From: Phycisphaerales bacterium
GTDB lineage: Bacteria; Planctomycetota; Phycisphaerae; Phycisphaerales; SM1A02
Reading direction: 5' to 3'
Assembly: GCA_009691785.1 (NCBI GenBank)
Contig: SIAM01000004.1
Coordinates: 1 to 64,000 of the forward strand
DNA: 64,000 nucleotides
The stretch's first letter is position 1; every line of letters starts with the position of its first letter. The notes below the pieces were generated by a model. It saw nothing but the letters and a program-made list of their open reading frames with translations, did no database searches and had not been told where the DNA came from. Both the position numbers and the translations under genes were made by a program. This document shows positions 616 to 32,037 of this stretch, one piece after another.

Positions 616-1560
616 ATGAAATCCCTCAATGCCCTTGTTATTACTGCGCCCGGAATTAATTGCGACCTTGAGTTGTCACAAGCATTTGCCGCGGCGGGCG
701 CTCAACCAGAAAGTATTTTGCTTTCGCGGCTCATGCGCAACCCAAGTCTTGTTGATAAATTCGCGCTGATTGGTTTGCCCGGTGGGTTTAGTTATGGCGA
801 CGACATTGCGGCGGGACGAATTATGGCGGCGTTAATGCGCCGCGAAATTTATCCAGCACTCGCCGCGGCTGTTGCGCGTGGCACACCAATAATTTGTCCG
901 TGCAATGGATTTCAGATCGCGGTACAGGCAGGTTTGTTGCCTGGTCCAACCGCAAGCCCAACCTTGAATCTGGTGTCCAACCCCGCAGCAATTTCGGACG
1001 CCAAAAAACCCGCGTCCATAAATACATGCACAACTTCTGCCACACCATTTAGCGCGTGGCCAAGTTTAGCCGCCTCTCCAACCGTTGCGCTTGACACAAA
1101 TATTGGTGAACGCTTTCATGATGCGTGGACGTGTGTGGAAATTCCAAGCAACACAAAATGTGTTTGGACTCGCGGACTTTGTCTAAGCCAAGATTGCGAC
1201 ATGCTTCCCAGCGCCCATGGTGAAGGGCGTTTTATGACTGACGCCAAGACGCTTGAAACGCTTGAAAAATGCGGTCAAATTGCCCTGCGTTACGCGACGC
1301 ACGACAACTTTAATGGCAGCACAAACGCCATTGCCGGAATCTGTGATCCAAGTGGCTTGGTTTTTGGACTTATGCCACACCCAGAGCGCTTCACGCGTTG
1401 GACGCAACACCCTTGGTGGACACGCCTGACAACACACCAGCGGGGCGTTGACACCCTTGGACTTTCTATATTTAAAAATGCGGTGGCTCACTTAAATTGT
1501 GGATTTGTGTCTTACGTTGCAAAAAATAATCAGCCCACTCGCCTTCACACAACTTTATGA
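616..1560 (+). CDS. purQ: phosphoribosylformylglycinamidine synthase, glutaminase subunit PurQ
   Basis: This class I glutamine amidotransferase releases ammonia from glutamine for PurL in purine biosynthesis. The N-terminus has APGINCD and the GGFSYGDD oxyanion region. The nucleophile is Cys96 in PCNGFQ, and the His/Glu of the triad lie in MPHPERF near residue 253. At 314 aa it is clearly longer than the roughly 230 aa of classical PurQ. The extra length is spread between the nucleophile and the HPE motif and at the C-terminus. ATG lies 3 nt after the purL stop, and the last four bases overlap the next gene's start (ATGA), which implies translational coupling. Confidence 0.94.
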   Translation: MKSLNALVITAPGINCDLELSQAFAAAGAQPESILLSRLMRNPSLVDKFALIGLPGGFSYGDDIAAGRIMAALMRREIYPALAAAVARGTPIICPCNGFQIAVQAGLLPGPTASPTLNLVSNPAAISDAKKPASINTCTTSATPFSAWPSLAASPTVALDTNIGERFHDAWTCVEIPSNTKCVWTRGLCLSQDCDMLPSAHGEGRFMTDAKTLETLEKCGQIALRYATHDNFNGSTNAIAGICDPSGLVFGLMPHPERFTRWTQHPWWTRLTTHQRGVDTLGLSIFKNAVAHLNCGFVSYVAKNNQPTRLHTTL

Positions 1561-2459: not shown

Positions 2460-3491
2460 ATGAGCAAGAAAACACTTCGATATGGCGTTATTGGGGCGGG
2501 TCGCATGGGCCGCCACCACATTCGTTTGGGAACCCAACTAGCCGCTGTTGAACTGGTTGGTGTTGTTGATCGCGATGCCTCGCGAAGAAATGAAATGACT
2601 GAAACCTATGGCGTCAAAGGCTTTGAAACGGTAGATGAACTTATTGCCCATGGTGTTGACTGTGTGGTCATTGCCACACCAACCATACACCATCGCACTG
2701 CGGCAGAAGCATTGTTGGCCAAGGGCGTGCACTGTCTCATTGAGAAGCCTCTTGCGCCCAGCGTGGTTGAGGCACGTGCAATTGCCGACGCCGCCGCAAG
2801 GTCTGGCGCAACATTGCAGGTTGGGCACGTTGTTCGCTACGACCCAGTCATGGTCGCCATACGCCAACTTTCTCTCAGTATGCCGCGATTTATTGTGATT
2901 GATCGCATTAGTCCAATGACGTTTCGCAGCGTTGATGTTGGCGTTGTTCTTGACATGATGATTCATGATCTTGATCTGTTGTTGATGTTGCTTGAGCGTG
3001 AACCTTCCGAAGTGCACGCGAGTGCGGTGAGTGTTCTTGGAGACAGCGAGGATGTATGTAACGCCCGCCTTACGTTTCCGCCTGGACCAGATGGATATCG
3101 TTGTGTCGCCAATATCACCGCGAGTCGGTTGGCTATGAAGACCGAGCGTAAAATTCGTTTAATTGGTTCAGACGCTTATACAAGCGCCGACTTTGTCGCG
3201 CGTAAGGGAACGGTTATTCGTAAAACAGCTAACCAAGAAACTTTGATTTCTGTAAAGAAAAGCCTGAAAGATGGCGAGGATTTGAGCAGTGTGAATTGGC
3301 TTGATCTTGTGTCGGTTGAACCACTGGATGTGAAAGCGGGGGAGCCATTGAAATTACAACTTGAAGATTTTATCGACGCCATTCATACCGGTCGAAAACC
3401 ATTCGCAGACGCGGAGGCGGGGTTTGCCGCGGTCCGTACCGCCGAACGAATTGTTGCGGCAGCAAAATCTATGGACAACGCCAAGGTGTAG
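2460..3491 (+). CDS. Gfo/Idh/MocA family NAD(P)-dependent oxidoreductase
   Basis: A 343-aa member of the Gfo/Idh/MocA dehydrogenase family. The Rossmann fingerprint GAGRMGRHH is at residues 12-20, and the family signature EKPLAP (catalytic lysine) is near residue 95. The second half fits the C-terminal sugar-binding alpha/beta domain, with a likely catalytic segment DMMIHDLDL around residues 164-172. The family oxidises or reduces sugars, inositols or UDP-sugars; the substrate cannot be read from the sequence. ATG at 2460 lies 18 nt after the preceding stop, with a TATGCT hexamer just upstream that could act as an internal promoter. It is 6 nt upstream of the endonuclease IV gene. Confidence 0.9.
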   Translation: MSKKTLRYGVIGAGRMGRHHIRLGTQLAAVELVGVVDRDASRRNEMTETYGVKGFETVDELIAHGVDCVVIATPTIHHRTAAEALLAKGVHCLIEKPLAPSVVEARAIADAAARSGATLQVGHVVRYDPVMVAIRQLSLSMPRFIVIDRISPMTFRSVDVGVVLDMMIHDLDLLLMLLEREPSEVHASAVSVLGDSEDVCNARLTFPPGPDGYRCVANITASRLAMKTERKIRLIGSDAYTSADFVARKGTVIRKTANQETLISVKKSLKDGEDLSSVNWLDLVSVEPLDVKAGEPLKLQLEDFIDAIHTGRKPFADAEAGFAAVRTAERIVAAAKSMDNAKV

Positions 3492-3497
3492 CCACCC

Positions 3498-5492
3498 ATG
3501 AGAATTGGTTCACATAGAAGCGCGGCAGGTGGGGTTGCAAACGCAATTCTTGAGGCGGTTGCGCTTGGTCTTGATTGTGTTCAATTATTCACCGCAAACC
3601 AACGGCAATGGAAACCGCGCCAACCATCTCAACAAGAATGCTCTGCCTGGTTTGCGGCGCTAAAAACCGCGGGTTGGAGCAAGCCTAAAAATAATCATGT
3701 TGTAAGCCACAATAGTTATTTGGTGAATCTTGCGAGTCCAGACGCGCAAGCAAGAAAAAAATCTATTGGGTTGCAACGAAGTGAATTGGAGCGTTGCGAA
3801 ATGCTTGGTATTGGTTTGTGTGTCATGCATCCCGGCGCGCACTTGGGCGACAAGCGATCACCCAAAGACAAAAATAATTTAGAAGCACAGCCAAACCTGG
3901 GGGAATTGGCTGGTATCAAGCGTCTTGTGGAAAGTTTGAATCAACTTCATAAAGATTTGCCTGGGTATAAAGTTTTGATGTGTCTTGAAAATACGGTGGG
4001 AGCGGGAACAACGCTGGGCTACAACTTCAATCAACTCGCAATGACTAGGGCACTTGTTGGTCATCCTGATCGAATTGCTTTTTGCATTGATACATGCCAC
4101 GCTGTCGCGGCGGGTTACAATATGGGCACAATCACAGGCGCGAATCAAACCTTAAAATTAATTGACCAACACCTTAAATTCGAACAGATTCGGGTGATTC
4201 ATGTCAATGATTCGCAATTTCCTTGTGGAAGCCGCAAAGATAGACACGCTCACATTTTTGATGGTGCGTGTGGTTCAACTTGTTTTGGAGCGGTAACCAA
4301 GGTGGCGGAGTGGAAAAATATTCCCATGATTCTGGAAACACCAAAGGAGGGTTTGTTTCAGGGCAGGAATTGGGATGTGGTAAACGCAGAGCGTGTGCTT
4401 GGTGCAGCCAATTTAAAATTCGGTTTGAAATCACCGAAGAAAAAAACCGTGGGTGCTCAAACTCCAAAGAATCCAGCCCTGGTTTTGTTACTTGTGACAA
4501 CACTGCTTGTGTTCAATACCGCTTGTAAAACAAGAACGCTTGATCAAATTCGTGGCGATACACCCATTGATAACCAACCCTTGTTTAGTGACACAACCGT
4601 TCCAAATGTTAAAGAAACGGCTCAGCTTTCGCACGCTGGGCAACTTATTGAGTCGGGTGATTACGACAGTGCGTTGGCAACCTTTCAAGAAATACTGCAA
4701 GAAAATCCAAAACTTCCGGAAGCGTGGGTGGGTGTTGGTCAGGTGCAGGCTCTGAAGAATGATTGGACACAATCCGAATCGGCGTATTTGAACGCGACAA
4801 ATCTTGATTTAAACAATTTCGATGCTCAGTTTGGTCGTGGCAAAGCACTTCAAGTTTTAAATCAATTGGTTGATGCAATTCGCGCCTATCACCGCGCTCT
4901 TTTGATTCGTCCCGAGGATTTTGACACCAATCTAAACATGGCCACTGCGTATCTTCAACTTGATGAAGGACAAAGCGCGGTTGTGTTCGCTGAAAAATCA
5001 GTCAAGCTAAAACCTGATTCTGGAATTGCGCGCTTAAATTTGGGCGTCGCTTATGAGTTATCAGGGAAACCAGAATTAGCTATTTCTCAATATGAAATTG
5101 CGGCGGAATTGATGGAGCCAACTCCGCAGCTTTTAAGAAATTTGTTAAATGCATATGCGCAAAGCAAGCGTTACCGTGAAGCCGTGAACGCTGCGTTACT
5201 GTTAGTAAAGTTGGCTCCCAACGCTAATAGTTACGAACGTCTTGGTTGGGCGTATTTTCGTGTGGGTGATTATGAGAAAAGTTTGTCAAGCTATCGCGAG
5301 GCTGTGCGCATTGATCCCAAACATTGGCCATCGTGGAACGGTATTGGTGTGAATTTGCTCAACGCGTGGATTAATAGCGGAAAGAAGGATGTAAATCTGC
5401 GCGGGAACGCCAAATCGGCTTTTGAACGATCGCTTCAACAAAATCCAGAACAGCCGAAAGTAGCTAAATTGATAAAGGCTTACAAATTATAA
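3498..5492 (+). CDS. nfo: endonuclease IV fused in frame to a TPR domain with an internal lipoprotein-like signal
   Basis: Residues 1-305 form a complete AP endonuclease IV, which incises DNA at abasic sites. All metal ligands expected of the family are visible: His71, His111, Glu164, Asp198, His201, His235, Asp248, His250 and Glu280. At about residue 325 a hydrophobic stretch begins and ends in a lipobox-like VFNTAC (Cys343), preceded by lysines. Residues 370-650 are TPR repeats with typical Ala/Gly/Pro spacing. No stop separates the halves. An independent start is possible at GTG 4449 (codon 318) or TTG 4425, which would give an ordinary TPR lipoprotein. A cytosolic repair enzyme joined to an exported half is odd; see findings. 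Confidence 0.88.
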   Translation: MRIGSHRSAAGGVANAILEAVALGLDCVQLFTANQRQWKPRQPSQQECSAWFAALKTAGWSKPKNNHVVSHNSYLVNLASPDAQARKKSIGLQRSELERCEMLGIGLCVMHPGAHLGDKRSPKDKNNLEAQPNLGELAGIKRLVESLNQLHKDLPGYKVLMCLENTVGAGTTLGYNFNQLAMTRALVGHPDRIAFCIDTCHAVAAGYNMGTITGANQTLKLIDQHLKFEQIRVIHVNDSQFPCGSRKDRHAHIFDGACGSTCFGAVTKVAEWKNIPMILETPKEGLFQGRNWDVVNAERVLGAANLKFGLKSPKKKTVGAQTPKNPALVLLLVTTLLVFNTACKTRTLDQIRGDTPIDNQPLFSDTTVPNVKETAQLSHAGQLIESGDYDSALATFQEILQENPKLPEAWVGVGQVQALKNDWTQSESAYLNATNLDLNNFDAQFGRGKALQVLNQLVDAIRAYHRALLIRPEDFDTNLNMATAYLQLDEGQSAVVFAEKSVKLKPDSGIARLNLGVAYELSGKPELAISQYEIAAELMEPTPQLLRNLLNAYAQSKRYREAVNAALLLVKLAPNANSYERLGWAYFRVGDYEKSLSSYREAVRIDPKHWPSWNGIGVNLLNAWINSGKKDVNLRGNAKSAFERSLQQNPEQPKVAKLIKAYKL

Positions 5493-5494
5493 AC

Positions 5495-6535
5495 ATGGAA
5501 AATTTGAATCCAATTCATGTTTTTCAGTCAGTCATGCTTGCAACAAGTGAAAATACATCGCTTACTTCCAAACAAGTTGATGAAGCACTAACGGCAATTT
5601 TTAGTGGGGGGGTTGAAACATCACTCATTGAAAAATGGTTGCGATTGGTATCGACGCATGTTCCCACAACCGCGGAAATATTTGGGGGTGTTCGGGCGTT
5701 GCTGCGAACGGGTTCGTCCATTCCAACAGATATCGCTTGTGAAAGAATCATTGATACGGCTGGTACGGGCGGTGCGCCAAAAATGCTAAATGTAAGCACG
5801 CTTTCCGCCGTGATTATTGCTGCGTGCCGCGGTGTGGTTGCAAAAAGTGGAAATCGTTCACGAACTGGATTTGGTTCATCTGAAACACTGGCGGCGCTGG
5901 GAGTAAATATCCAAGCCGAGCCCATTACACAAGCAAGAATGTTGGCTGAGTGTGGTTTTTGTTTTTGCTTGGCTCCCAAACATTATCCCGCGGCGCGGTT
6001 TGCGAGTGAAGCCCGTAAAGCAATTGGTACTCCAACACTGTTCAATGCTATTGGACCATTGTCCAATCCTGCGGGTGCAATGCGCCAGGTGGTTGGAGTT
6101 TGGAACCGAGATCTTTTAACACCTGTAGCAGAAGTTCTTGCGCGTCGTGGCGCGGTGCGGGCGTTTGTGATTCATAGCGCGGATGGATTTGATGAAGTGA
6201 GTGTGAGTGATCAAACACACGCTGTTGAGGTTGTGCGTGGAAGGGTTATGGGAAATATTGTTTTTGAACCAGAGCAGTTTGGAATTCCAAGAAGTAAATC
6301 GCCACCACAAGGCGTCCAAAATCTTCAAGACGCCACAACCTTATTTCGTAGATTGGCATCTGGAATTGATTGTGGGGGCGCGCTTGATTTGGTTTTGGTA
6401 AACGCCGCTCTTGGTTTAATGGTGGCGGACAAAGCCAATGATCCAAAAACGGCGGCGGCGTTGGCGCTAGATGCAATTCAATCAGGACGCGTAAATTCGC
6501 TTCTTGAAAGAATTGTTGTCTTGTCGAATCAATAA
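5495..6535 (+). CDS. trpD: anthranilate phosphoribosyltransferase TrpD
   Basis: TrpD transfers phosphoribose from PRPP to anthranilate, the second step of tryptophan synthesis. The 346-aa length is typical. The PRPP-binding glycine motif GTGG is at residues 90-93, followed by LNVST, then SGNRS near residue 115 and FNAIGPLSNPAG near residue 180. The residue after GTGG is usually Asp but is Ala here, and a helix-capping SGSAD-type segment reads GSSET. ATG lies 2 nt after the endonuclease-TPR gene stop. No other trp gene is present in the window, so the pathway is dispersed. Short A/T-rich hairpin-like sequence follows the stop. Confidence 0.92.
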   Translation: MENLNPIHVFQSVMLATSENTSLTSKQVDEALTAIFSGGVETSLIEKWLRLVSTHVPTTAEIFGGVRALLRTGSSIPTDIACERIIDTAGTGGAPKMLNVSTLSAVIIAACRGVVAKSGNRSRTGFGSSETLAALGVNIQAEPITQARMLAECGFCFCLAPKHYPAARFASEARKAIGTPTLFNAIGPLSNPAGAMRQVVGVWNRDLLTPVAEVLARRGAVRAFVIHSADGFDEVSVSDQTHAVEVVRGRVMGNIVFEPEQFGIPRSKSPPQGVQNLQDATTLFRRLASGIDCGGALDLVLVNAALGLMVADKANDPKTAAALALDAIQSGRVNSLLERIVVLSNQ

Positions 6536-30081: not shown

Positions 30082-31075
30082 TCAAGGCGGCTTGTTCATC
30101 GGCGCGGTAACTGCTTCGAACCAGTGGACCGCTTTCACAAATTCTGTAGCCACGATCCAAGGCCTGTTTTTTAAATTCAATAAATTGATCGGGGCGAACC
30201 CAGCGATCGATCGGAAGATGATTTCTTGTTGGCTGCAAATATTGGCCAATGGTCAAAATGTCCGCCTGAGATTCGCGGCGTACATCATCCATAAGGTCTA
30301 GAACCTCCTCGTCGTGTTCCCCAATACCAACCATGATTCCAGTTTTGGTGAGCAAGCCACTTGCCTTGAATTGTTTAAGAACACTCAACGAGCGTTCATA
30401 ACGCGCTTGTGGGCGGACGGCGGAATGCATGCGCCGAACGGTTTCCATGTTGTGACTAATGATTCGTGGTCGCGCATCACACACGGTCTGAATTGCTTTT
30501 TCGTTGCCACAAAAATCGCCAACAAGAACCTCAATACTCATCTGTGGACACGCGGCGCGCGTAAGGCGAATTGTTTGCGCCCAAATTTCAGCGCCACCAT
30601 CCGGCAACTCGTCACGGTTCACGCTGGTAATTACCACATGCTTTAGAGCCATAAGCCGCAAACTTTCCGCGACGCGGCGGGGTTCATCAAAATCAAGAGC
30701 GGCGGGGCGACCGGTTTTGACATTACAAAAACCACAACTGCGCGTGCACGTGTCGCCAAGAATCATAATTGTGGCCGAACCACGGCTCCAACACTCGCCC
30801 ATGTTTGGGCAACTTGCCTCTTGGCAAACCGTATGAAGTTTGTGCTCGTCCATAATTCCCTTTAGGCGCAGATAACCCTCGCCACCAGGGACGCGGGCGC
30901 GTAGCCAATCAGGCTTTTTTCCGATTCGTAAATTTTGGCGGGTTTCATCACCATTATTTAAAATGAACGCAGAAAGACTTATGGCCGGAACGGGAAGATT
31001 TCTGGCTGTGTCACCACCAAGTGGCTTTGGATGGCGCGCAAGAGTTCGGTTGTTTGCGGATTGTGGAGTGGTCAC
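30068..31075 (-). CDS. lipA: lipoyl synthase LipA
   Basis: 335 aa radical-SAM enzyme that inserts two sulfurs into protein-bound octanoate to make lipoate, needed by the E2 protein encoded at 34019. Both iron-sulfur sites are visible: the auxiliary CxxxxCxxxxxC (CQEASCPNMGEC near residues 83-94) and radical-SAM CxxxCxxC (CTRSCGFC near residue 110). The C-terminal RSSY motif that holds the auxiliary cluster is present near residue 322. The N-terminal extension of about 45 residues is longer than in E. coli. Start is GTG 31075. No lipB is adjacent. Confidence 0.97.
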   Translation of the reverse strand: MTTPQSANNRTLARHPKPLGGDTARNLPVPAISLSAFILNNGDETRQNLRIGKKPDWLRARVPGGEGYLRLKGIMDEHKLHTVCQEASCPNMGECWSRGSATIMILGDTCTRSCGFCNVKTGRPAALDFDEPRRVAESLRLMALKHVVITSVNRDELPDGGAEIWAQTIRLTRAACPQMSIEVLVGDFCGNEKAIQTVCDARPRIISHNMETVRRMHSAVRPQARYERSLSVLKQFKASGLLTKTGIMVGIGEHDEEVLDLMDDVRRESQADILTIGQYLQPTRNHLPIDRWVRPDQFIEFKKQALDRGYRICESGPLVRSSYRADEQAALISDL

Positions 31076-31083
31076 AGATACCT

Positions 31084-31089
31084 AGCGTA
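31084..31089 (-). promoter_or_regulatory. -10 TACGCT for lipA
   Basis: The minus strand reads GGCTACGCT, with TACGCT ending 8 nt before GTG 31075. There is no Shine-Dalgarno sequence, which is consistent with a near-leaderless message. The element is the same as that upstream of the YggS-family gene at 62904. Confidence 0.45.
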
Positions 31090-31125
31090 GCCCCAACAAG
31101 CCATATCATTCAAGCCAAATTAATG

Positions 31126-31131
31126 CATACT
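31126..31131 (+). promoter_or_regulatory. -10-like CATACT for the ThuA lipoprotein gene
   Basis: CATACT ends 6 nt before ATG 31138. The spacing matches other leaderless-type starts in the window, and it supports this Met over an in-frame ATG 15 nt earlier. Confidence 0.35.
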
Positions 31132-31137
31132 TCAGCC

Positions 31138-32037
31138 ATGTTAAACGCAGCTATTGCGCAGGCGGCGCGTTGTTTTAAATACCCAGCGGTACTTTGGGTA
31201 TTCGTGGCGGTGTTTGGGTGTGTTGATACGCCCACACCAAACAACACGCCGCCCGTGATTAAAAATGAATCACGGTTACAACCCCAATCATTAAATAGTC
31301 AAACAACCAGCGCAAGGGTGCCAATAACAAACATCCCCGCCGAGTTGCCACACGTTCTTGTTTTCACAAAAACAATGGCGTATAGACACAAGAATATTTC
31401 CGATGGCGTGTATGCGCTGCGCGAAACAGGAATTGGAAAATTTATTGTGGAGCAAACAGAGGATTCGGGCGTGTTTACCCCCAACAACCTAAAACGATTT
31501 TGCGCCGTTGTTTTTTTTAGCACAACAGGTGACGTGCTCAACAAGGAGCAACAGGTCGCGTTTGAACAATACATACACGACGGAGGCGGATTTGTGGGCA
31601 TTCACTCTGCTTCCGATACGGAATATGACTGGCCCTGGTACGGGAAACTTGTTGGCGCTTGGTTTAAAGATCACACCAAAGTTATTTTGGCGACAGTGTG
31701 CCGCGAAGACAAGACACACATTAGCACCAATGATTTTCCGGATATGTGGAAACGCGAAGATGAGTGGTATAGGTTTCGAACCAACCCGCGGAAAAACGTT
31801 CGGGTGTTGGTGACCGTCAATGATCAAGATTTGGGCGAGGTCACAATGAATGGCGACCATCCAATTTCTTGGATGCATGAATTTGAAGGTGGACGGTCCT
31901 GGTACACAGGCATGGGGCACACGAAAGAATCTTTTTTAGAGCCAGAATTTAGGAAACATGTTTTGGGTGGAATTTTGTGGGCAATGGGGCCTTGTGCAAT
32001 CGCAGATTTAAATCAAGCAAACACGAATTCCAAGTAA
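31138..32037 (+). CDS. ThuA-domain lipoprotein
   Basis: About 299 aa. A lipoprotein signal ends in VAVFGC near residue 28, followed by a Thr/Pro/Asn-rich linker. The rest is a ThuA-like domain (class I glutamine-amidotransferase-like fold, trehalose-utilisation family), recognisable from LVFTKTMAYRHKNI, GGGFVGIHSASDTEYDW and PISWMHEFEGGRSWYTGMGH. Such proteins are abundant in Planctomycetota and are thought to act on or bind sugars; the precise substrate is unknown. An in-frame ATG at 31123 is an alternative start. It is divergent from lipA and its 3' end faces deoC. Confidence 0.88.
   Translation: MLNAAIAQAARCFKYPAVLWVFVAVFGCVDTPTPNNTPPVIKNESRLQPQSLNSQTTSARVPITNIPAELPHVLVFTKTMAYRHKNISDGVYALRETGIGKFIVEQTEDSGVFTPNNLKRFCAVVFFSTTGDVLNKEQQVAFEQYIHDGGGFVGIHSASDTEYDWPWYGKLVGAWFKDHTKVILATVCREDKTHISTNDFPDMWKREDEWYRFRTNPRKNVRVLVTVNDQDLGEVTMNGDHPISWMHEFEGGRSWYTGMGHTKESFLEPEFRKHVLGGILWAMGPCAIADLNQANTNSK

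What the first reader, a model, noticed from the sequence alone, without database searches (positions are those of the whole stretch)
3498..5492. Endonuclease IV fused in frame to a TPR lipoprotein-like half
A complete AP endonuclease IV (all nine expected metal ligands visible) continues without a stop into a hydrophobic segment ending in VFNTAC and then a TPR array. A lipobox-like signal in the middle of a cytosolic repair enzyme makes little sense if translated as one chain. Either the stop codon between two genes was lost, or an internal start (GTG 4449 or TTG 4425) yields a separate TPR lipoprotein, or the fusion tethers a repair enzyme to the membrane. None of these is a normal nfo arrangement.
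Basis: partly seen in the sequence, partly recalled or inferred. Interest (0 to 1): 0.6.

Follow-up and report, generated by a model that had tools for sequence, protein, structure and literature searches.

The report
DNA-repair enzyme fused to exported lipoprotein
In a group of lake bacteria the only recognised enzyme of its kind for cutting DNA at missing bases is made in one piece with an exported, probably membrane-anchored protein, joined through an export signal in the middle of the chain; the join is real and arose more than once, but what it does for the cell has not been tested.

Summary
The ORF at 3498..5492 is one unbroken 664-aa frame: endonuclease IV (TIGR00587; all nine metal ligands), a basic linker, a hydrophobic segment ending in Cys343, then a TPR solenoid. 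It is not a sequencing error. I verified the same unbroken frame in 44 genomes of six genera of one planctomycete-like family, including 13 of 13 congeners that hold the locus; 37 rows from related genera carry two adjacent genes with a stop between them. The fusion was not found outside that family in order-wide (301) and phylum-wide (392) samples. Fused genes are not one clade (AU p = 7e-47; at least 3-4 changes), so stops were lost more than once, or lost and regained. The linker is the least conserved part, yet the [G/A/S]-Cys end of the hydrophobic segment is kept in 44 of 44. Nfo and Xth never co-occur (112 and 25 of 151 genomes), so this chain carries the only AP endonuclease of either family that I could find. 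Without a stop, every ribosome that makes Nfo also makes the tail. Best reading: a membrane precursor, Nfo inside and TPR outside, probably cut at the internal lipobox. Against it: Lgt was not found, the window's own lipobox is non-canonical (Asn at -3), and nothing was measured.

The parts
3498..5492 (+). Single open reading frame, 664 aa: Nfo - linker - internal signal/lipobox - TPR
   Evidence: Unbroken in 44 genomes.
3498..4397 (+). Endonuclease IV (Nfo) domain, residues 1-300, all nine metal ligands
   Evidence: Pfam PF01261 E 5.6e-42; TIGR00587 E 1.9e-69; 1qtw alignment; Foldseek TMt 0.90-0.93. dN/dS 0.05-0.18.
4398..4475 (+). Variable basic linker, residues 301-326; holds TTG 4425 and GTG 4449, candidate internal starts that relatives do not conserve
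   Evidence: Low pLDDT at 309-325.
4476..4514 (+). Hydrophobic segment, residues 327-339 (ALVLLLVTTLLVF)
   Evidence: A hydrophobic segment is present in 44 of 44 fused rows.
4515..4526 (+). Internal lipobox-like NTA-C, Cys343
   Evidence: Cys invariant in 36 of 36 of A1; G/A/S at -1 in 44 of 44; Asn at -3 is non-canonical.
4608..5480 (+). TPR solenoid, residues 371-661
   Evidence: Pfam TPR families; helical pairs with pLDDT mostly above 90; designed CTPR hits TMt 0.90.
2460..3491 (+). Upstream neighbour, Gfo/Idh-type oxidoreductase, 6 nt before the nfo ATG
5495..6535 (+). Downstream neighbour trpD, ATG 2 nt after the TAA of the fused gene
   Evidence: TIGR01245 E 1.9e-73.

Best explanation
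This is a real, inherited fusion of two neighbouring genes, nfo and a TPR lipoprotein gene, by loss of the nfo stop codon with the downstream signal peptide kept. SHOWN by sequence: one frame; both halves under strong purifying selection; ligands and Cys kept; recurrence; no second AP endonuclease found. INFERRED: the chain is made in one piece; the Nfo domain folds in the cytosol; the basic linker and hydrophobic segment act as an internal (type II) signal that sends the TPR half through Sec; the conserved Cys is lipidated and signal peptidase II cuts before it. This leaves a TPR lipoprotein outside and an active Nfo in the cytosol with the spent signal peptide as a C-terminal membrane anchor, which an RseP-type protease may later release. 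The signal peptide would act as a built-in separator, which would explain why stop loss is tolerated. Whether tethering Nfo is useful or merely harmless is open.
For: Same unbroken frame in 44 genomes of 6 genera. Cys343 invariant in 36 of 36 while the linker is the least conserved region. Hydrophobic segment with G/A/S-Cys in 44 of 44, net basic flank in 41 of 44. 3 of 44 have no ATG/GTG/TTG 14-45 codons upstream; ATG at 16-35 codons in 18 of 44 fused against 32 of 37 split. dN/dS 0.05-0.18 for Nfo, 0.02-0.10 for TPR, 0.26-0.93 for the linker where defined. All ligands invariant. Nfo in 112 of 151 genomes and Xth in 25 of 151, none with both, so the Nfo half must work if these cells repair AP sites by a known enzyme. 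LspA homologue present and M50 protease family present. AlphaFold: two confident domains, low-confidence link 309-325 and 339-364, pTM 0.51. In 415 kb of the genome (19%) this was the only internal-lipobox candidate.
Against: Lgt (PF01790) was not found in the window's 92%-complete assembly; no lipidation, and so no SPase II substrate, without it unless it is missed or divergent. The LspA homologue passes Pfam but not the NCBIfam equivalog cut-off (53.2 of 73.95). The window's own clade has Asn (7) or His (1) at -3 of the lipobox in 8 of 8, and only 27 of 44 fused rows fit a PROSITE-like lipobox pattern (recalled) against 28 of 37 split. In g17 an ATG 19-25 codons before the Cys is present in 4 of 4, and 36 of 44 fused rows have some start codon at 16-35 codons, so extra internal starts are possible in many. 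No expression, topology or cleavage data.
Confidence: 0.48

Rival explanations
1. Uncleaved bitopic protein: the signal stays as a transmembrane anchor, holding active Nfo at the inner face of the membrane and TPR outside as one chain; the Cys may be lipidated or not.
For: Lgt not found; non-canonical -3 residue in the window clade and only 27 of 44 pattern fits; basic flank and hydrophobic segment would anchor a type II protein.
Against: Cys with G/A/S at -1 in 44 of 44 in an otherwise variable linker; linker length varies from nearly none (g43) to tens of residues, and the model shows no confident domain-domain arrangement (pTM 0.51), which gives no sign of a coupled two-domain machine.
Confidence: 0.22
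2. Dual products by internal initiation: the fusion is made, and the TPR lipoprotein is also made separately from an internal start (GTG 4449, 25 codons before the Cys, in the window).
For: GTG 4449 would give a plausible 25-residue signal; g17 has ATG 19-25 codons before the Cys in 4 of 4; 36 of 44 have some start codon at 16-35 codons.
Against: 3 of 44 have none at 14-45 codons; ATG at 16-35 codons drops from 32 of 37 (split) to 18 of 44 (fused); GTG 4449 has no Shine-Dalgarno-like motif and is not conserved in the genus. SD is a weak test here: only 10 of 37 split genes show one with an ATG. Even so, Nfo alone could not be made, since no stop exists.
Confidence: 0.25
3. Sequencing or assembly error, or a decaying gene.
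For: The related named sources are mostly metagenome bins.
Against: 44 genomes, six genera, strong purifying selection on both halves.
Confidence: 0.01

Closest known systems
Endonuclease IV / Nfo (E. coli 1qtw, T. maritima 4hno; TIGR00587)
   Same: TIM barrel, nine metal ligands, about 32% identity in the structural alignment; over the TIGR00587 cut-off.
   Different: Solved Nfo chains are 252-323 aa; this one has over 350 more residues, a membrane segment and an exported-type domain. It is below the cut-offs of the narrower PRK01060 equivalog models.
Sec/Lgt/LspA bacterial lipoproteins, including the TPR lipoprotein of the same family in related genera
   Same: Basic flank, hydrophobic core, G/A/S-Cys; the split relatives have ordinary N-terminal lipoprotein-type signals.
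   Different: The signal lies at residues 327-343, behind a 300-residue enzyme; -3 is Asn; Lgt not found in this assembly.
Internal-signal polyproteins: hepatitis C core-E1 (PMC5402940, start of abstract seen in the listing)
   Same: Cytosolic N-terminal protein ends in the signal peptide of the next protein; signal peptidase separates them and the first stays anchored until an intramembrane protease frees it.
   Different: Viral, eukaryotic ER, a different signal peptidase; here the cut is only inferred and would be by SPase II.
Bradyrhizobium fbcH, cytochrome b-c1 precursor cut at an internal signal (recalled; no paper on it found)
   Same: Bacterial gene fusion whose product is separated at an internal signal peptide.
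   Different: Both parts are membrane or exported subunits of one complex; here one part is a cytosolic DNA-repair enzyme with no known link to the other.

Membership tests
Endonuclease IV (Nfo) | Sequence over the family cut-off | tested here: met
   TIGR00587 234 bits, cut-off 129.65; the narrower equivalogs NF002196-NF002199 were matched below their cut-offs.
Endonuclease IV (Nfo) | Nine trinuclear-metal ligands | tested here: met
   All nine aligned with 1qtw and invariant in 36 of 36; the E. coli ligand list is recalled.
Endonuclease IV (Nfo) | TIM-barrel fold | tested here: met
   Foldseek 4hno, 1qtw TMt 0.90-0.92.
Endonuclease IV (Nfo) | AP endonuclease activity | not testable with these tools
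   No assay; indirect support from mutual exclusion with Xth.
Bacterial lipoprotein | Lipobox Cys with G/A/S at -1 | tested here: met
   44 of 44 fused rows; that search pattern required G/A/S/C before the Cys, but the Cys is also invariant in A1, aligned without it.
Bacterial lipoprotein | Canonical -4 to -2 residues (Leu-type at -3) | tested here: not met
   Asn at -3 in the window; 27 of 44 fused and 28 of 37 split fit a recalled PROSITE-like pattern.
Bacterial lipoprotein | Signal peptide at the N terminus | tested here: not met
   Segment at residues 327-343 of the unbroken frame.
Bacterial lipoprotein | Lgt and LspA in the genome | tested here: inconclusive
   LspA over the Pfam cut-off; Lgt not found, assembly 92% complete.
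TPR protein | Tandem helical TPR repeats | tested here: met
Internal-signal polyprotein (core-E1 or fbcH type) | Proteolytic separation at the internal signal | not testable with these tools
   No protein data.

The most novel reading that the evidence does not exclude
A bacterial housekeeping 'polyprotein': the sole AP endonuclease is delivered as a precursor with an exported lipoprotein, separated by signal peptidase II at an internal lipobox, and stays membrane-tethered by the spent signal peptide. The arrangement evolved repeatedly because a signal peptide makes loss of the upstream stop nearly harmless, and it puts base-excision repair at the membrane or links it to envelope state.
Probability: 0.35. 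Interest if true: 0.75.

Novelty: new variant of a known kind. Interest (0 to 1): 0.5.

Why it matters
The parts are known; the joining is not described in anything I found. It gives a concrete, repeatedly evolved bacterial case in which a cytosolic DNA-repair enzyme and an exported protein share one reading frame, and it predicts either membrane-tethered base-excision repair or protein separation by lipoprotein signal peptidase. It also warns gene annotators: a lipobox in mid-protein here is not an annotation error. If signal peptides buffer stop-codon loss, similar fusions should be detectable in other streamlined genomes.

Tried and rejected
Sequencing or assembly error: rejected by 44 genomes. 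Loss of the gene in G005, G009, G012: not concluded; they also lack the neighbour trpD, so the region is probably missing from those bins. A single origin of all fusions: rejected, with the cautions that g43, G016 and G038 have long branches, that several deep forks are weakly supported, that the group was named before the test but after a first tree had been seen, and that one fusion followed by several re-splits cannot be told from several fusions by parsimony alone. Other internal-lipobox fusions in the same genome: none seen in 415 kb; that scan's -3 statistic rests on only 10 candidates, some of them doubtful. Shine-Dalgarno motifs as proof of start choice: dropped, since only 10 of 37 split genes show one with their ATG. 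A function for the TPR half: nothing beyond generic TPR; the NCBIfam TPR lipoprotein models were all far below cut-off. Literature: four searches aimed at this fusion or at internal lipoprotein signals listed no such protein by title or start of abstract; those papers were not read, apart from passages of PMC9360617. (stop loss between adjacent genes) was equally unhelpful. Passages of PMC11039613 and PMC6461901 on freshwater bacteria hold no occurrence of 'fusion' in the main text. The phylum-wide scan used E <= 1e-120 and could miss a very distant fusion.

Full report
WHAT IS THERE. The window carries one unbroken frame, 3498..5492 on the + strand, 664 codons, ATG to TAA. It begins 6 nt after a Gfo/Idh-type gene and ends 2 nt before the ATG of trpD, so it sits in a tight co-directional run. 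Residues 3-284 are endonuclease IV: TIGR00587 at 234 bits against a cut-off of 129.65, best solved relatives 1qtw and other Nfo structures. Residues ~370-661 are TPR repeats. AlphaFold2 with the 36-row alignment A1 gives mean pLDDT 87.5 and pTM 0.51: two confident domains with uncertain relative placement, low confidence at 309-325 and 339-364, and a short helix at 326-339. Foldseek finds Nfo structures (4hno, 1qtw; TMt 0.90-0.92) and a designed TPR solenoid (8chy; TMt 0.90). The nine metal ligands line up with E. coli Nfo (the ligand list itself is recalled) and are invariant in A1.

IS IT REAL. Yes. In the window's genus, 16 genomes were examined. Ten have the full fused frame, three more (G001, G003, G013) are fused through the junction but cut by a contig end, and three (G005, G009, G012) lack the locus together with its neighbour trpD. 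For G001 the two contig ends share an exact 149-base overlap, and the second contig carries the rest of the TPR half followed by trpD. In all I verified the unbroken frame in 44 genomes: 44 rows from 43 genomes (g1 12, g59 15, g60 1, g6 3, g17 4, g43 9 rows from 8 genomes) plus G001. A named public contig, L038, carries it too.

ANCESTRAL STATE. 37 comparison rows from related genera have nfo followed, on the same strand, by the TPR gene, with an ordinary stop between and usually an ATG that opens a normal lipoprotein-type signal peptide soon after it. In an order-wide sample of 301 genomes the unbroken full-length matches all lay in the window's family f1 (the row list is cut at its weak end, but unbroken matches rank at the top). 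In a phylum-wide sample of 392 genomes the only unbroken matches were again in f1: G000, G007, G020 and G064 (E <= 1e-120).

HOW OFTEN DID IT ARISE. On a tree of 81 rows built from both halves without the linker, the state needs at least 5 changes, 4 forced by well supported branches. On a careful tree of 49 of those rows it needs 4, of which 3 are forced, and 0 of 200 bootstrap trees make the fused rows one clade. Holding them together is rejected (log-likelihood 136 lower, AU p 6.8e-47). Long branches (g43, G016, G038) and several weak forks make the exact number uncertain, and repeated fusion cannot be separated from fusion plus re-splitting. Because the order is otherwise split, I favour repeated stop loss.

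THE JUNCTION. The linker is the least conserved part: dN/dS 0.26-0.93 in the nine pairs where it is defined, against 0.05-0.18 for Nfo and 0.02-0.10 for lipobox plus TPR, 11 pairs in all. Yet Cys343 is the only invariant residue between N296, at the end of the Nfo domain, and P369, just before the TPR array. All 44 fused rows have a hydrophobic segment ending in G/A/S-Cys, 41 of 44 with net positive flank. In g43 the signal follows the last Nfo helix almost directly. The lipobox is not canonical everywhere: the window and its seven nearest congeners have Asn (7) or His (1) at -3; overall 27 of 44 fused and 28 of 37 split rows fit a PROSITE-like pattern that I recalled.

INTERNAL START? With no stop, any ribosome that completes Nfo must read on, so free-standing Nfo cannot be a primary product; only an additional, separate TPR product is in question. 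GTG 4449 would give a plausible signal peptide in the window but is not conserved, nor is TTG 4425. Within 16-35 codons before the Cys an ATG is present in 32 of 37 split but 18 of 44 fused rows; counting GTG and TTG the figures are 35 of 37 and 36 of 44; 3 of 44 fused rows (G020, G081, G295) have no such codon at 14-45. In g17 an ATG 19-25 codons upstream is present in 4 of 4, so internal initiation may persist there. Related rows are not independent counts.

WHY NFO MUST STILL WORK. In 151 family genomes, Nfo was found in 112 and Xth above its cut-off in 25, with no genome in both sets and 14 with neither. None of the fused genomes in that sample has Xth above cut-off. In the window's genome seven other AP_endonuc_2 or Exo_endo_phos matches exist; the five whose proteins I scanned are sugar-isomerase-like, secreted-nuclease-like or unmatched in NCBIfam, not Nfo or Xth. 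So the fused chain carries the only AP endonuclease of either family that could be recognised. In G019 and G022, which have Xth instead, the TPR protein is kept without Nfo, so that half does not need Nfo to be retained.

MECHANISM. From the anatomy, the likeliest course is a type II precursor: Nfo folds inside, the internal signal sends the TPR half out, the Cys is lipidated and LspA cuts before it, leaving Nfo anchored by the spent signal until, perhaps, an intramembrane protease frees it. An LspA homologue and the M50 protease family are encoded. A review read in passages (PMC9360617) states that SPase II acts on diacylglycerol-modified prolipoproteins and that RseP can cleave membrane-spanning signal peptides. 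Against this, Lgt was not found in the 92%-complete assembly, and the LspA match is under the NCBIfam equivalog cut-off. If lipidation is absent, the uncleaved bitopic form is the next candidate. No protein evidence exists for any of them here.

WHAT IT IS LIKE. It works, by inference, like polyproteins separated at an internal signal: hepatitis C core-E1 (PMC5402940, start of abstract as printed) and, from recall only, Bradyrhizobium fbcH, for which searches listed no dedicated paper. Its two halves are members of known families; the combination was not found in the searches.

ORGANISM. Not named by the tools. Related named records are mostly lake or other metagenome bins, one labelled Planctomycetaceae. 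A small genome of 2.19 Mb is reminiscent of the freshwater Nemodlikiaceae (Phycisphaerae; PMC6461901, passages read), which is an inference, not a test.

Noticed in passing
family f1, 151 genomes: Endonuclease IV and exonuclease III (Xth) are mutually exclusive: 112 genomes with Nfo, 25 with Xth over cut-off, none with both, 14 with neither.
   Followed up: partly
G064 (L079 and L088): One genome holds two fused copies on different contigs; the C11 copy is nearly identical to that of G096. Duplication or mixed bin.
   Followed up: no
L099 (G030): In genus g16, sister to the window's genus, the TPR lipoprotein carries a roughly 300-residue Pro/Ala/Glu-rich stretch between lipobox and TPR; nfo and TPR are separate there.
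   Followed up: partly
window genome G000: LspA homologue found but no Lgt by PF01790; either missing from the assembly, divergent, or truly absent.
   Followed up: no
L038 (RFYV01000065.1): A contig deposited as a Betaproteobacteria bin carries this planctomycete-type fused gene at 76% identity, probably a binning error.
   Followed up: no
L048 (G139): The junction contains a run of Met-rich near-repeats with many in-frame ATGs.
   Followed up: no
window 616-1560: PurQ-like protein of 314 aa scores below the NCBIfam equivalog cut-off and seems to carry an extra stretch.
   Followed up: no
window 31021-32034: Protein of 338 aa with a lipobox-like site at residue 66 of the longest frame; the true start may be further downstream.
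   Followed up: no
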